From the NCBI GenBank assembly GCA_022511045.1, contig JAFLSF010000002.1, forward strand, positions 17,930-73,719: 55,790 nucleotides of DNA, read 5' to 3'. The position numbers were made by a program, and so were the translations under genes. The notes below the pieces were generated by a model, which saw only the letters and a list, made by a program, of their open reading frames with translations, ran no database searches and had not been told where the DNA came from. Below are positions 1-55,790 of this stretch, piece by piece. Numbering within the stretch: position 1 is the first letter of the stretch; each line of letters begins with the position of its first letter. The stretch comes from Prevotella sp. (lineage in GTDB: Bacteria; Bacteroidota; Bacteroidia; Bacteroidales; Bacteroidaceae).

Positions 1-99
1 GGACTATCCACACCCTTAACGCGGACTATCCACACCCTTAACGCGGACTATCCACGTCATGGGTGCGGACTATACACACTCCATCGCCCAACCGTTGGG
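1..99. repeat. 22-bp periodic palindrome array A (enters from left window edge)
   Basis: Units 1-20 (truncated), 21-42 gcggactatccacacccttaac, 43-64 gcggactatccacgtcatgggt, 65-86 gcggactatacacactccatcg. A different palindrome, cccaa-ccg-ttggg, lies at 87-99. Dyad centres at 27, 49, 71 and 93 are spaced exactly 22 bp. Confidence 0.85.
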
Positions 100-125: not shown

Positions 126-1238
126 TTATGTATTCTCTACTTCCGAGCAAATCTTTTCCAGTTCTGATAAGGGGTGATTCATCTTGTCCGGGTCTAATTC
201 GTAATAGTGGCAGTTGGCCGCCATCGTCTGTTTTGGAAACTTAAAATTTGGACCAAGTGATTTGTAACGGATGCAAATAAAACGGTCATAAGCGTCGTTA
301 TACTTTCTATATTTACATAGAAAGCAATTCTTTATAGACAACCCTTTTTTCTTTATCAGATAAATAAGCCCCGATTCGTAAGAATTTAGAGTGTTATTAT
401 TGACATTTTCTCCCCATAATTCAACACCAAATTCTTTCAGATTCAGTTCATAGGCAGAATCGGGGTGAAGTTTCCTATGCAGGTCCTCACAATATACAAT
501 ATAATCATGCGCCTTGTATACACGCGCAGCACCATTCTTAAAAAGAACAAACCTTTCTATAGGTACATCATCTTTTTTTATGGATGGCAGTTCGGGATTA
601 AAATTATGTAATATACAATTCCCCCTTTCCTCTTCAACAAATCCTCTGCTGATAATGTCTTCTATATCATCTTCGGACCTAAGTTGTGTAGTTTCTATGA
701 TCTTATATCCTGATTTTAATTTTGACTCCTCTGATTTGTGACTTATGTAAATCTCAATGAAAATCAAGGGTCTTTCTGGTTCTTTTGAATAAGATAACAA
801 AAGGTCTGGACGAAATTCTCCAACTTTGCATTCTTCTTGGCAAGTGTCATATAGCGTTTTATCTTTCCAAATCTTGAGATCTCTGGAAATAGAAACACCT
901 ATTGTTTTACAAGAAGAATCATGATAGAATGGGCATGTGTCTTTCTGATTGCATGGAACATTTTTTGTAAAAGTTATTGGAAAGCTATCTGAGGACAGAA
1001 ATTTCTCTCGGATTTTGCGCTTTGCCAATTTATGAAGATACGATTCTCCGTTGCAGGCGGTATTAGCTTTATGAGAGAAATACCAAGCCTTTTTAGTGCC
1101 GAGATTAGCTACCATTTCTTGTCCACATTCCAGACAAAGTAACTTATGGTTATGTCTGGTTTCATTTGTTATTTCTTTAATGTGAACCAGCTGGTTGTTC
1201 TCGTTTATGCAATAGCTATACTTTACCTGCTTTTTCAT
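126..1238 (-). CDS. CoiA-like / competence-associated nuclease-like protein
   Basis: 370 aa ORF; N-terminal zinc-finger-like CxxC (LLCLECGQ), 'AWYFSHKANTACNGESYLHKLAKRKI' and 'FRPDLLLSYSKEPERPLIFIEIYISHKSEESK' resemble the CoiA nuclease-like domain. Confidence 0.6.
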   Translation of the reverse strand: MKKQVKYSYCINENNQLVHIKEITNETRHNHKLLCLECGQEMVANLGTKKAWYFSHKANTACNGESYLHKLAKRKIREKFLSSDSFPITFTKNVPCNQKDTCPFYHDSSCKTIGVSISRDLKIWKDKTLYDTCQEECKVGEFRPDLLLSYSKEPERPLIFIEIYISHKSEESKLKSGYKIIETTQLRSEDDIEDIISRGFVEEERGNCILHNFNPELPSIKKDDVPIERFVLFKNGAARVYKAHDYIVYCEDLHRKLHPDSAYELNLKEFGVELWGENVNNNTLNSYESGLIYLIKKKGLSIKNCFLCKYRKYNDAYDRFICIRYKSLGPNFKFPKQTMAANCHYYELDPDKMNHPLSELEKICSEVENT

Positions 1239-1341
1239 CAGAATGAAAAATTAAAATATCTGAAGACTCTTATCTTATAAAACAAGGATAAGCATTTTTA
1301 TAATACGAGAATAATTATATATCAAATTATCGCTATATGGC

Positions 1342-1360
1342 AACAAAGTGCCGTTTTGTG
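1342..1360. repeat. Solo palindrome related to the AACAAAGTGCCGCTTTGTT units of the arrays
   Basis: aacaaagtgccgttttgtg; differs only near the 3' arm from aacaaagtgccgctttgtt at 14829-14847. Confidence 0.6.
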
Positions 1361-1379
1361 AGAAAGGGGATATGAGGAC

Positions 1380-2549
1380 TTAATTCGTGCAGCGAAAGAA
1401 CTTGTAAGTGAGGGCATACTCCCGATGGCCGAGAGCCTCGGAACGGGTGGGAGTGCCCGAGGCAGTCTGACGGATGCACTCAAGAATCTGGTCGCGGATG
1501 TCCTCAAAGTTAAGACCTTGTGTAACGATGGCTCCAGCATTGATGTCCATATCGTCCTGCATACGCTGATAGGTGTCGGGATTAGAACAGACCTTGACGA
1601 CGGGCGATATGGCGCTGCCTGCTACGGAGCCACGCCCTGTGGTGTAGAGCACCAAGTGACAGCCGCAGGCCGCCATCTCCATGATTTCGGCATTGTCGTT
1701 GATGTTGGGGAAGCCCCAGCGCGCCTCGCCATCGGGCACAACATCCATCATCCACAAGCCCTTATCGGTGGGGGGAAGCGCTGGGTAGGTGAGGCCTTGA
1801 ACGGGACGCGAGCCGCTTTTGCAGTACGAGCCGAGCGACTTCTCCTCAATGGTGGTCAGTCCGCCTGTGGCATTGCCAGCAGAAAAACTGTCGTGTCCCA
1901 TCTGCTTATAGTATTTGTCGGCCTTGACAATGCAGTTGTAGAGTTGTTCGCCCAATTCAGAATTGGCGGCACGCTGGCGCAACAGGTCTTCGCAGCCGAT
2001 AAGTTCGCCTGGTTCCTCGAAAATGCACGTAGCTTGATGGTCGACCAGCCAATCGAACGTAGCGCCTACGGAGGGGTTGGCAGTGATGCCGCTATAGCCG
2101 TCGCTGCCGCCACAGACGGTACCGATAACGAGGTCGCTCCACTGGATGTCTACTTGCGGAATATCGGCTATGTTGCGCAACATGGTACCTACTGCGCGGA
2201 TGCCTTGCTCAATAGCAGGCATGGTGCCGCCCTCCTCTTGAATGACAATAAGTTCTGCAGGCCGTCCGCTGTCTTGGATGTCGTGTAGCAGCCGTTCGCG
2301 CTGGAAATTCTCGCAGCCCAGCGATACCAACAGTACGGCACCTACGTTGGGATGGGTGCAGAGCCGTTGCATCATCAGTTCAGCATAGTTGTTGGGTGCG
2401 CAGCCGCTGAATCCGATAAGGTGTACCTCCTCTTGTTGGTAATGCTGGGCAATGCGTGAAGCCACATGATGGGCGCACTCCACGAGGTAGGTGACAACTA
2501 CCAAGTTGCGGATGCCTTTCCGCCCATCCTTGCGCAGATAGCCTTTCAT
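1380..2549 (-). CDS. UxaA family hydrolyase (altronate/galactarate dehydratase large-domain type)
   Basis: MKGYLRKDGRKGIRNLVVVTYLVECAHHV, GFSGCAPNNYAELMMQRL and VIGTVCGGSDGYSGITANPSVG are typical of the UxaA/GarD C-terminal domain. Confidence 0.85.
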   Translation of the reverse strand: MKGYLRKDGRKGIRNLVVVTYLVECAHHVASRIAQHYQQEEVHLIGFSGCAPNNYAELMMQRLCTHPNVGAVLLVSLGCENFQRERLLHDIQDSGRPAELIVIQEEGGTMPAIEQGIRAVGTMLRNIADIPQVDIQWSDLVIGTVCGGSDGYSGITANPSVGATFDWLVDHQATCIFEEPGELIGCEDLLRQRAANSELGEQLYNCIVKADKYYKQMGHDSFSAGNATGGLTTIEEKSLGSYCKSGSRPVQGLTYPALPPTDKGLWMMDVVPDGEARWGFPNINDNAEIMEMAACGCHLVLYTTGRGSVAGSAISPVVKVCSNPDTYQRMQDDMDINAGAIVTQGLNFEDIRDQILECIRQTASGTPTRSEALGHREYALTYKFFRCTN

Positions 2550-14705: not shown

Positions 14706-14714
14706 TCAATTTTT

Positions 14715-14888
14715 GTGGATAGTCCACGTGCTTAGTGCGGATAGTCCGCACTGCAAGTCCGGATAGTCCGCACTATCGGTGCGCATACTCCGCACTATTG
14801 ACGAGCCGTATTCTCGTCATCAACCATCAACAAAGTGCCGCTTTGTTAGTGACAAATTCTTGATTCGTCATAGACGAGGACTATGTGC
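14715..14888. repeat. 22-bp periodic palindrome array B
   Basis: Centres at 14721, 14743, 14765, 14787, 14809, then +29 to 14838, 14860, 14882. Cores: gtggatagtccac, gcggatagtccgc, ccggatagtccgc, gcgcatactccgc, gagccgtattctc, aacaaagtgccgctttgtt, gacaaattcttgattcgtc, gaggactatgtgc. Confidence 0.85.
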
Positions 14889-29229: not shown

Positions 29230-29318
29230 GTGGTCCGTTCGTTTTCGTTTGCAAATATAGCAAAAAAATCCGACATACGATATTCTTTTTAAAGAATTAA
29301 CGCTTCTACCCTTTTTAT

Positions 29319-29378
29319 GAGTATAGGCCTCGTCGTTGTTGAGTATAGGCCTCGCTTTTAACGAAGCGGCACTTTGTT
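29319..29378. repeat. 22-bp periodic palindrome array C
   Basis: gagtataggcctc at 29319-29331 and 29341-29353 (centres 29325, 29347), then aacgaagcggcactttgtt at 29360-29378 (centre 29369); exact 22-bp steps. Confidence 0.8.
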
Positions 29379-29501
29379 ACCCGCATAACTGAGACTTGCT
29401 AAAAACGCCCATTTTGCTGGCTTTTTGTGAGGCTTTGAAAATATAAGGTGCGAGCAGGAAAGAAAACCGCCATAAAGTTTGGTATTTCGCTTGTTTTTTT
29501 G

Positions 29502-40191: not shown

Positions 40192-40788
40192 GTGAAAAGT
40201 CCTGCAATTGTTGTATCAGATGGTCTTCGTGAAGTATTGCTTCACGCGTGCTGTGCTCCGTGCTCTTCTGCTATTGTCGAGTGGTTGTTGGCACATGACA
40301 TAAAACCTGTTATTTTTTATTATAATCCCAATATCTTTCCACTTGAAGAGTATAACATACGCAAGGAGGAGAGTAAACGCCACGCTGAGCATTTAGGTAT
40401 TACGTGGATAGATGGCGACTATGCACACGAGGACTGGCTGCAAGGTGTTTGCGGACTGGAGAGAGAACCCGAACGGGGGCGCCGATGTGAGCGTTGTTTT
40501 ACATTACGCCTTACAAAAGCAGCGCTCAAAGCAAGGGAACTTGGCTTGCAGTTTTTTGCTACCACGCTGGCCTCGAGCCGATGGAAGAGTCTGGAACAGA
40601 TAGAACGGGCGGGCCGTCAGGCAGAAGTGCAAATTGGTGGTGTCACTTTTTGGGCGCAAAATTGGCGTAAGGGAGGACTGCAAGAGCGGCGTAATCAGTT
40701 GCTTCGTGAGTTTCGTTTTTATAATCAGCAATATTGCGGCTGCGAGTTCTCTTGTATTAAGGAAGGTACTCAGTTAGTGCATCAATAA
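40192..40788 (+). CDS. queH: Epoxyqueuosine reductase QueH
   Basis: LLHACCAPCSSAIVEWL, IFYYNPNIFPLEEYNIRKEE, CGCEFS. Confidence 0.93.
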   Translation: MKSPAIVVSDGLREVLLHACCAPCSSAIVEWLLAHDIKPVIFYYNPNIFPLEEYNIRKEESKRHAEHLGITWIDGDYAHEDWLQGVCGLEREPERGRRCERCFTLRLTKAALKARELGLQFFATTLASSRWKSLEQIERAGRQAEVQIGGVTFWAQNWRKGGLQERRNQLLREFRFYNQQYCGCEFSCIKEGTQLVHQ

Positions 40789-41959
40789 TATCTGTTGCAA
40801 CTTCCTCTTTCTTTTTCTTAGGGTAATCATGTTGTCCATCGTTTGAGATGATGCTAATCTGATTTTCGTCTGATTGGAAACAAGTACCTTTGTTTTGTAG
40901 AGAGTTTAGCACAATAAAGTCAAGGTTCTTCTTCTCCAACTTTTTATGGGCGTTGGCTAACTCATCGTTGGTTTCAAGGGCAAAGCCTACTAATACTTGG
41001 CCTGCCTTTTTCTCTCGTCCGAGCGTAGCGGCAATATCGTGAGTGGGTTGTAAGCTAATAACGAGGTCGTCCTTTTCGCGCTTAATCTTATGCGGAGCTA
41101 CTTGCTTGGGGCGGAAGTCTGCGACGGCAGCACAAAGAATGGCGGCATGCATTTGAGGAAAGGCCTCAATGGCTGCTTGGTACATATCTTCGCAACTCTC
41201 AACATTGATACGATAAATGTTGGGAGAGCATTGCAGGCTGACGGGACCAGCAATAAGCGTTACTTCAGCCCCGCGACGAGCACATTCCTCGGCCAGCGCA
41301 AATCCCATTTTCCCGCTGGAGTAATTACCGATGAAGCGGATGGGGTCTATTCTTTCGTAAGTGGGACCTGCGGTAATAAGAATTTTTTTTGAAGCGAGGG
41401 ATAAGGGACAAGTGGTGCGAGAAAAGTAGTCGTTCAGATACTCGACAATCTTCTCTGGTTCCTCCATACGACCTTTCCCTTCGAGTCCAGAGGCGAGAAA
41501 TCCGCTCTGGGGCTCAATGATATGGTTTCCGAACGCTTTCAAACGCTCTATGTTCTGTTGAGTGGTAGGGTGTTGGTACATGTCCAAATCCATAGCGGGG
41601 GCAATGAAGATGGGTGCTTTCATGGACAGATAGGTCGTGACGAGCATATTGTCTGCTATCCCATGAGCCATTTTCCCTAACGTAGAAGCCGTGCAAGGAG
41701 CTATGAGCATAGCATCGGCCCACAAGCCCAGCTTGACGTGTGAATGCCACGTACCGTCGCGTTGTGCGAAGAACTCGCTGATGACTGGTTTTTGCGTTAG
41801 GGCGGAGAGCGTAATGGGCGTGATAAACTCCTTGCCAGCAGGAGTAATGACCACCTGAACCTCAGCGCCTGCCTTGATGAGTTCGCGAATAATGAGGCAC
41901 GATTTATAGGCGGCAATAGAGCCCGTGATACCTAAAACTATTTTCTTTCCTTTGAGCAT
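40757..41959 (-). CDS. coaBC: Phosphopantothenoylcysteine decarboxylase / phosphopantothenate-cysteine ligase
   Basis: KKIVLGITGSIAAYKSCLIIREL, ITAGPTYERIDPIRFIGNYSSGKMG. Start MLKGKK at 41959. Confidence 0.96.
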   Translation of the reverse strand: MLKGKKIVLGITGSIAAYKSCLIIRELIKAGAEVQVVITPAGKEFITPITLSALTQKPVISEFFAQRDGTWHSHVKLGLWADAMLIAPCTASTLGKMAHGIADNMLVTTYLSMKAPIFIAPAMDLDMYQHPTTQQNIERLKAFGNHIIEPQSGFLASGLEGKGRMEEPEKIVEYLNDYFSRTTCPLSLASKKILITAGPTYERIDPIRFIGNYSSGKMGFALAEECARRGAEVTLIAGPVSLQCSPNIYRINVESCEDMYQAAIEAFPQMHAAILCAAVADFRPKQVAPHKIKREKDDLVISLQPTHDIAATLGREKKAGQVLVGFALETNDELANAHKKLEKKNLDFIVLNSLQNKGTCFQSDENQISIISNDGQHDYPKKKKEEVATDIIDALTEYLP

Positions 41960-42012
41960 GCTTCTTTTTGTTCTTTGTGGCAACTGATATGGGTATGGGT
42001 CTTGCTCTTGAT

Positions 42013-42114
42013 GAGGATAGGCCTCACGGTTGACGTGTGTAGGCCTCGTGGCTTGTGAGAATAGTCCTCGTCAGTCGTGCGGATAGTCCTCACTATATGT
42101 GCCTCTATGAGAGG
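42013..42114. repeat. 22-bp periodic palindrome array D
   Basis: gaggataggcctc, gtgtgtaggcctc, gagaatagtcctc, gcggatagtcctc at centres 42019, 42041, 42063, 42085. Then cctc-tatga-gagg centred at 42108 (1 bp off phase). Confidence 0.8.
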
Positions 42115-42135: not shown

Positions 42136-42963
42136 CTACTTTTTCGTCTCGCGGAGACGGATGCGGGTCAATACTTGCTTGGTATTGTAGGTAAAGTCTC
42201 CCGCGAGAATCCAACTATAATAGCCTGGGTCGAAACGAAGTACTTCGGCAACGGGAATCCCTTTGTGCTTACCGAAATTGAAGACTTCTGTGCGTACGCC
42301 TTTCACGTCGGCCCAGACGATGCGGCCTGCGAAGTCTACGTTGTCGTTGGTCTTCGAGAAGTCTGCCAGCACTTGCATGTCGTTGGCCAACACGCGGCCT
42401 GTCGGGTCTTCGCCCAAAGAGCGCTGATGTTCTTCCGTGTAACAATCAAGTTCGCCCATGAGTACGCGATAGGTGGCCTCAGTGTCTTGGTCGGCCCTGT
42501 GCGCCTCAAAATCGTCTTCCATCCTTCTTCCACAATAGAACTTATAGGCTGCGGCCAAGTTTCGACGCTCCATCTTGTGAAAGATAGTCTGTACGTCAAT
42601 GAGGCGACACTTGGAGAAGTCGAAGTCTATGCCTGCGCGCAGGAATTCCTCAGCCAGCAACGGAACGTCGAAGTGGTTGGAGTTGAAGCCCGCAATATCG
42701 CTGCCCGTGAAAACTTCACAGAGTTTGGCAGACACTTCCTTAAAGGTTGGTTTGTCCTTAACGTCTTCGTTGCTGATGCCCGTCAGCTGTACTACTAAGT
42801 CTGGAATGGGCTTTTCCGGATTGACGAGTTCATTGCCGCGCACCTCTTGCCCGTCTGGGAATACCTTAATGTAAGATATTTGGATGATGCGGTCCTTAAC
42901 TAAGTCAAGGCCCGTTGTCTCCAAATCAAAAATGACGAGGGGCTTTTGTAAGTTCAGTTTCAT
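42136..42963 (-). CDS. 3'-5' exonuclease (DNA pol III epsilon-like DEDD family)
   Basis: LVIFDLETTGLDLVKDRIIQISYIKV, AGFNSNHFDVPLLAEE, HRADQDTEATYRVL. Confidence 0.95.
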   Translation of the reverse strand: MKLNLQKPLVIFDLETTGLDLVKDRIIQISYIKVFPDGQEVRGNELVNPEKPIPDLVVQLTGISNEDVKDKPTFKEVSAKLCEVFTGSDIAGFNSNHFDVPLLAEEFLRAGIDFDFSKCRLIDVQTIFHKMERRNLAAAYKFYCGRRMEDDFEAHRADQDTEATYRVLMGELDCYTEEHQRSLGEDPTGRVLANDMQVLADFSKTNDNVDFAGRIVWADVKGVRTEVFNFGKHKGIPVAEVLRFDPGYYSWILAGDFTYNTKQVLTRIRLRETKK

Positions 42964-55605: not shown

Positions 55606-55627
55606 ATGCCCATCCTCCCTCGTCGCT

Positions 55628-55790
55628 AACAAATCCCTGATTTGTTGCCAACGAAGCAACACTTTGTCGTCGATAAACCGTACTTTCGTCAGCCACGAAA
55701 GTACGGTTTGTTATTACTGAGCCTATTGTATACCTTTTGTCTCCCTCTGATATACAAGTTGTATACGCCTGGAATACAACTTGTATACAC
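55628..55790. repeat. 22-bp periodic palindrome array E (runs off right window edge)
   Basis: aacaaatc-cct-gatttgtt (centre 55637), aacgaagcaacactttgtc (55659), tatacaagttgtata (55758), atacaacttgtat (55780). A 15-bp-arm hairpin centred at 55692 lies 66 bp (3 x 22) before 55758. Confidence 0.75.
55675..55709. terminator. 15-bp perfect inverted repeat, probable terminator of the C69 dipeptidase gene
   Basis: aaaccgtactttcgt-cagcc-acgaaagtacggttt followed by gttatta. Confidence 0.65.

What the first reader, a model, noticed from the sequence alone, without database searches (positions are those of the whole stretch)
1..99. Array A switches palindrome sequence without losing phase
Three near-identical units (core gcggactatccac, or gtggatagtccgc on the minus strand) and one variant are centred at 5, 27, 49 and 71. 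The next 22-bp step lands on an unrelated dyad, cccaa-ccg-ttggg, centred at 93. On the minus strand the outer mismatch in the first units becomes a U-G wobble (gUgga/tccGc), which mildly favours an RNA form. The array lies just 3' of the CoiA-like gene and continues outside the window.
Basis: seen in the sequence. Interest (0 to 1): 0.7.

Follow-up and report, generated by a model that had tools for sequence, protein, structure and literature searches.

The report
Prevotella arrays of 22-bp palindrome bricks
The short array at the window's left edge is one copy of a dispersed DNA repeat built from 22-base palindromic bricks that change sequence but keep an exact 22-base step; similar arrays with different brick sequences turn up in many Prevotella species, and I found no published description of them.

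Summary
Three near-identical 22-bp units and one variant lie at 1-81, with a perfect 13-bp dyad (87-99) exactly one step further. The array continues left across a 100-N scaffold gap, giving at least 8 units, between a CoiA-like gene and a pepP-like gene.

Palindrome switching without loss of phase is real, but the proof comes from elsewhere. The genome carries dozens of such arrays, made of at least seven unit families, mostly in one recurrent order. Neighbouring units of different families sit at exact multiples of 22 bp in 42 of 45 cases. The 87-99 dyad itself is unique in the genome, so it remains inconclusive.

Arrays with other palindromes occur in at least ten other Prevotella-group genomes. 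In 0.90 Mb of blindly sampled congeners, period 22 gave 10 strong dyad arrays against 0-4 at other periods. Other Bacteroidales families showed no excess.

They are extragenic and biased to gene 3' ends. One sits where congeners have 0-50 bp between genes, so it is an insertion. Covariation without G-U preference speaks against an RNA role.

Best reading: a DNA-level, amplifying palindromic mosaic repeat (REP/BIME- and MITE-like) with an unusual 22-bp lattice. The enzyme or binding protein is unknown; no RAYT gene was found.

The parts
1..81 (-). Array A, visible part: one cut 22-bp unit (1-15) and units 16-37, 38-59, 60-81 of the GGATAGTCC family; continues left beyond a 100-N gap with 4 more units (L005 17743-17829)
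87..99 (.). In-register dyad CCCAACCGTTGGG, centre 93; singleton in the genome, status as a unit inconclusive
126..1238 (-). CoiA-like gene (370 aa, CoiA_N domain) whose 3' end faces array A
14711..14820 (+). Second array: GGATAGTCC-type units at 14711, 14733, 14755 and 14777, then unrelated palindrome TGACGAGCCGTATTCTCGTCA at 14799, all in phase
14828..14871 (+). Continuation with units TAACAAAGTGCCGCTTTGTTA-type and TGACAAATTCTTGATTCGTCA, after a 7-bp phase break (one of 3 exceptions)
29315..29380 (+). Short array: two GAGTATAGGCCTC units and one TAACGAAGCGGCACTTTGTTA unit in phase
42009..42096 (+). Array of four GATAGGCC/GATAGTCC units between an exonuclease gene (42136-42963 -) and coaBC (40757-41983 -); that junction is 0-50 bp in congeners
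55627..55790 (.). Mosaic array at the contig end: AACAAATCCCTGATTTGTT, AACGAAAGTACG-type and TTGTATACnnnnnGTATACAA units

Best explanation
The array is one copy of a dispersed, extragenic mosaic repeat made of palindromic bricks. Each brick is about 21 bp of palindrome (two arms of up to 8 bp around a ~5-bp centre) plus 1 bp, so the step is exactly 22 bp. Shown: bricks belong to several sequence families, follow each other in a mostly fixed order with a defined terminal unit, keep the 22-bp register when the family changes, are a lineage-specific insertion at the one site where this could be tested, and lie mainly at gene 3' ends. Inferred: the elements work and spread as DNA, not RNA. Whole arrays are copied to new places; units are then lost or duplicated by recombination or slippage; a protein or enzyme that recognises the palindrome or hairpin every two helical turns holds the register. 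The mobilising or binding protein is not identified.
For: 138 core-pair matches in this genome against 0 control; second family with 168 matches. Different-family neighbours at multiples of 22 bp in 42 of 45 cases, same-group 122 of 128. 984 substitutions between adjacent units but only 2 steps that are not multiples of 22. Recurrent order T-g-t/c-(P or K)-Q-R-S and conserved terminus TTTTCRAGTGTAAAGATTTCTT with unrelated flanks. Exonuclease/coaBC junction is 0-50 bp in the congeners of the genus where it could be read and 155 bp with the array here. Arm pairs covary within the unit while G-U and A-C are both depleted. Convergent intergenic enrichment 12/28 vs 4/37, p=0.004 (contexts). Same architecture with other sequences in congeners.
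Against: No transposase or recombinase could be tied to the arrays; no Y1/RAYT gene was found in this 89%-complete genome. Target-site duplications were not tested. Random orientation to genes and 3'-end location also fit a passive repeat. The role of 22 bp as two helical turns is an inference.
Confidence: 0.5

Rival explanations
1. Binding lattice with a cellular role: arrays are tandem dsDNA sites for a host DNA-binding protein that docks cooperatively on one face of the helix (22 bp is about two turns), acting as a boundary, roadblock or nucleoid site at gene 3' ends.
For: Strict 22-bp spacing despite ~35% divergence between neighbouring units; odd-centred dyads; 11-bp versions in other species; depletion between divergent genes; conserved GATAGTCC-like core in several species.
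Against: Unrelated palindromes share one array, and arms vary freely while the asymmetric centre is often conserved, which is unusual for a dimer site; no protein identified; the array at the tested locus is lineage-specific.
Confidence: 0.22
2. Passive minisatellite: the arrays have no function. Slippage duplicates 22-bp units, and intrastrand template switching at quasi-palindromes keeps the arms complementary.
For: Complementarity is maintained without G-U bias; array A is a homogeneous recent expansion; contigs break at arrays.
Against: Does not explain why unrelated families keep one register, why indels are almost absent against 984 substitutions, or why unrelated palindromes in many species all use 22 bp.
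Confidence: 0.14
3. RNA element: a chain of 22-nt hairpins in 3' untranslated regions that stabilises or terminates transcripts.
For: Minus strand of array A folds at z -6.7 and contains U-G wobbles; arrays lie mostly downstream of genes.
Against: G-U not preferred over A-C, with sense strands 41 vs 67; no orientation bias to genes; no Rfam match; no terminator-like sites at arrays A and 14711.
Confidence: 0.1

Closest known systems
REP sequences and BIMEs (GTAG/CGTC-tagged palindromic repeats, PMC3733652)
   Same: Short extragenic palindromes in many copies, clustered as mosaics, mainly at gene 3' ends
   Different: Here units abut head to tail at an exact 22-bp step across unrelated palindromes; GTAG/CGTC tags were not sought systematically; no Y1/RAYT gene found in this genome
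BrickBuilt MITE of Porphyromonas gingivalis (PMC4596501)
   Same: A Bacteroidales intergenic element with an internal minisatellite of short bricks, lineage-restricted
   Different: BrickBuilt has 23-nt bricks inside a MITE with terminal inverted repeats; here bricks are 22 bp, palindromic, of several families, with one conserved terminal unit found
CRISPR arrays
   Same: Regularly phased repeated palindromes
   Different: No unique spacers of constant length; units themselves vary; dozens of arrays per genome

Membership tests
REP/BIME with RAYT | Multiple extragenic palindromes of 20-40 bp, clustered as mosaics | tested here: met
REP/BIME with RAYT | Associated Y1 (RAYT/IS200-like) transposase in the genome | tested here: not met
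   PF01797: no match in G000 (89% complete); matches in 4 of 6 other genomes searched
REP/BIME with RAYT | Tetranucleotide tag (GTAG/CGTC) at the foot of the palindrome | not tested
   No systematic test; the units seen carry no obvious common tag
MITE (BrickBuilt type) | Terminal inverted repeats and target-site duplication | not tested
   Only one conserved terminus (T unit) was recognised; duplications not examined
MITE (BrickBuilt type) | Presence/absence at orthologous sites | tested here: met
   One site tested: exonuclease/coaBC junction 0-50 bp in readable congeners of the genus, 155 bp with array here
CRISPR array | Identical repeats separated by unique spacers | tested here: not met
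Structured RNA | Covariation with G-U tolerated on the transcribed strand | tested here: not met
Known Rfam RNA | Match at gathering score | tested here: not met

The most novel reading that the evidence does not exclude
A previously undescribed genus-wide class of mobile DNA elements in Prevotella whose only conserved property is architecture: 22-bp palindromic bricks of freely changing sequence held in strict register, implying a dedicated protein that reads palindromy and spacing, with at most a short core such as GATAGTCC.
Probability: 0.3. Interest if true: 0.8.

Novelty: new variant of a known kind. Interest (0 to 1): 0.6.

Why it matters
Repeats are usually recognised by sequence. These are recognisable by spacing and symmetry, so annotation misses them even though they break assemblies at many places. 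If a protein sets the 22-bp step, it would be a DNA-recognition mode that tolerates almost any arm sequence, testable in culturable Prevotella with complete genomes. They also offer strain-typing markers for rumen and gut Prevotella.

Tried and rejected
Rfam: nothing. Viral contigs with two array patterns, plasmid and phage records: nothing. RAYT/Y1 transposase as driver: absent here. RNA hairpin reading: wobble statistics against. Terminator reading: no terminator-like sites at two arrays. A recurrent 87-99 palindrome family: singleton. Occupancy of the pepP upstream site in congeners: no strong array there, but the CoiA-like gene is not adjacent, so not informative. Literature searches gave REP and BrickBuilt papers only; subscription journals are mostly not held.

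Full report
What is there. The window begins immediately after a 100-N scaffold gap in contig C12 of a 2.14-Mb draft genome in 98 contigs. Units GGACTATCC (minus strand GGATAGTCC) lie at 1-9, 23-31 and 45-53 with variant GGACTATAC at 67-75, step 22 bp. CCCAACCGTTGGG at 87-99 falls exactly on the next step. Left of the gap four more units follow (L005 17743-17829). The array lies between a CoiA-like gene (126-1238, minus; CoiA_N) whose 3' end faces it and an aminopeptidase-P-like gene (L005 16231-17661, minus).

Genome-wide family. Pairs of this core at 22-bp spacing with up to 3 mismatches occur 138 times in the genome and the reversed pattern never. A second brick, TTGTATACnnnnnGTATACAAn, gives 168 matches. 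A third, AACAAAGTGCCGCTTTGTTA, gives 10. Rows of 22 bp around about 45 places show one unit design: arm of up to 8 bp, centre of about 5 bp, complementary arm, one linker base. Classification of the units shows the families in a recurrent order: terminal unit T, then GATAGGCC units (g), GATAGTCC and CATACTCC units (t, c), then TTGTATAC units (P) or TGACGAGCCGTATTCTCGTCA (K), then Q (AACAAAGTGCCG), R (AACGAAAGTACG) and S (AACAAATCCCTG). One array carries twelve consecutive units (L074). Several contigs end inside arrays, so unit numbers are underestimated.

Phase. To avoid assuming the register, unit hits were called at any position and the distance to the next hit tabulated. Different-family neighbours: 32 at 22, 7 at 44, 3 at 66, and 3 off phase (29, 38, 46). 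Same-group neighbours: 122 of 128 at multiples of 22, the other 6 at 11 (probably the alternate dyads of P); shuffled sequence gave no neighbours. One off-phase case is in this window at 14821-14827. Adjacent units differ at 7.7 of 22 positions on average, 984 substitutions in all, against 2 steps that are not multiples of 22 (the chain finder there allowed only steps of 22 or 44 plus or minus 1). Since indels normally make up a fair share of non-coding changes (general knowledge), the spacing looks constrained.

CCCAACGGTTGGG occurs once in the genome. On that flank of 38 arrays, in-register dyads are not generally enriched, whereas on the other flank runs of 4 or more pairs occur at 26% in register against 2.6% off register.

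DNA or RNA. Arm positions covary within units (pair 6-16 z 6.8; pair 3-19 z about 3), not between units except for the subfamily position, and G-U pairs are depleted like A-C pairs. On sense strands of 16 co-directional arrays G-U is 41 and A-C 67. Orientation relative to the gene whose 3' end faces the array is balanced (22 same, 25 opposite; tally). Array A itself folds better as minus-strand RNA (z -6.7 vs -2.1), but it is a recent expansion of one unit and should not be generalised. No Rfam family matched.

Context. Of 28 arrays with both neighbours called, 12 lie between convergent, 14 between co-directional and 2 between divergent genes; random gaps of 60 bp or more in the same genome are 4, 23 and 10 of 37 (Fisher p 0.004 for convergent, 0.055 for divergent). 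The ORF caller is simple, so counts are approximate. The array at 42009 separates an exonuclease gene from coaBC. In the congeners of the genus where both genes are adjacent on one strand the junction is 0-24 bp, with one at 50 bp, by protein alignment ends, against 155 bp here; two genomes of other families have about 100 bp without an array. The array is therefore most simply an insertion in this lineage. About nine T-type ends share TTTTCRAGTGTAAAGATTTCTT or part of it with unrelated sequence upstream, as expected of an element terminus.

Other species. An exact pattern search in named genomes found the family in rumen Prevotellaceae RUG546, Prevotella sp. RGIG9954 and Alloprevotella sp. 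RGIG4970, each with its own unit sequence. Dyad-phase scanning without any sequence model found 22-bp arrays with unrelated palindromes in G004, G012, G016 (a single-contig genome), G028, G065, G066, G070 and, less clearly, G076. In 0.90 Mb of congener sequence not chosen for arrays, 10 arrays scored 14 or more at period 22, against 0-2 at other periods except 4 at period 33; 15 of 16 arrays scoring 12 or more at period 22 are intergenic, though one of these is a different 44-bp repeat. Twenty stretches (273 kb) from other Bacteroidales families gave 1 at period 22 against 0-6 at other periods. The core GATAGTCC recurs with different complementary arms in several congeners, and some species use an 11-bp version (GATAATCCATC). 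Arrays were not found in viral contigs, plasmids or phages with the queries used.

Interpretation. The facts fit a dispersed mosaic repeat that inserts, is trimmed and is expanded in 22-bp units, acting at DNA level. What holds the register is not shown. Two helical turns of supercoiled DNA is about 22 bp (general knowledge), so a protein docking side by side is plausible; a hairpin-processing enzyme is the alternative. REP/RAYT membership fails on the transposase test in this genome, with the caveat of 89% completeness. BrickBuilt of P. gingivalis (PMC4596501) is the nearest published Bacteroidales analogue but has 23-nt bricks within a MITE.

Limits. The genome is a draft; only stretches were read. 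No strain comparison was possible. Blind sampling covered small parts of each congener, so absence in a genome is not shown. Insertion was tested at one site only. Unit families were defined by eye from the first arrays and then scored mechanically.

Noticed in passing
L005 17830-17929, contig ends: A 100-N scaffold gap lies inside array A just left of the window, and many contigs of this draft (for example C12, C25, C28, C40, C58) start or end inside 22-bp arrays, so the arrays are assembly breakpoints.
   Followed up: partly
window 14821-14827: A 7-bp phase break between the TGACGAGCCGTATTCTCGTCA unit and the AACAAAGTGCCG unit, one of only three off-phase transitions seen.
   Followed up: no
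window 1340-1361: A lone AACAAAGTGCCGTTTTGTGA unit just 3' of the gene at 1380-2549 (minus), without a recognised array around it.
   Followed up: no
L279, L280: Species G114, G154 and G201 carry 11-bp tandem arrays (GATAATCCATC / GATACTCCATC) followed by the inverse orientation; the 22-bp lattice may be a doubled 11-bp unit.
   Followed up: partly
L200 14750-15030: In single-contig genome G016 a tandem 44-bp repeat CTCCCCTCCTTGGGAGGGG... lies about 300 bp from a 22-bp dyad array; it looks like a different repeat class.
   Followed up: no
blind congener stretches: Period 33 (1.5 times 22) also showed a small excess of dyad arrays, 4 at score 14 or more, partly inside genes.
   Followed up: no
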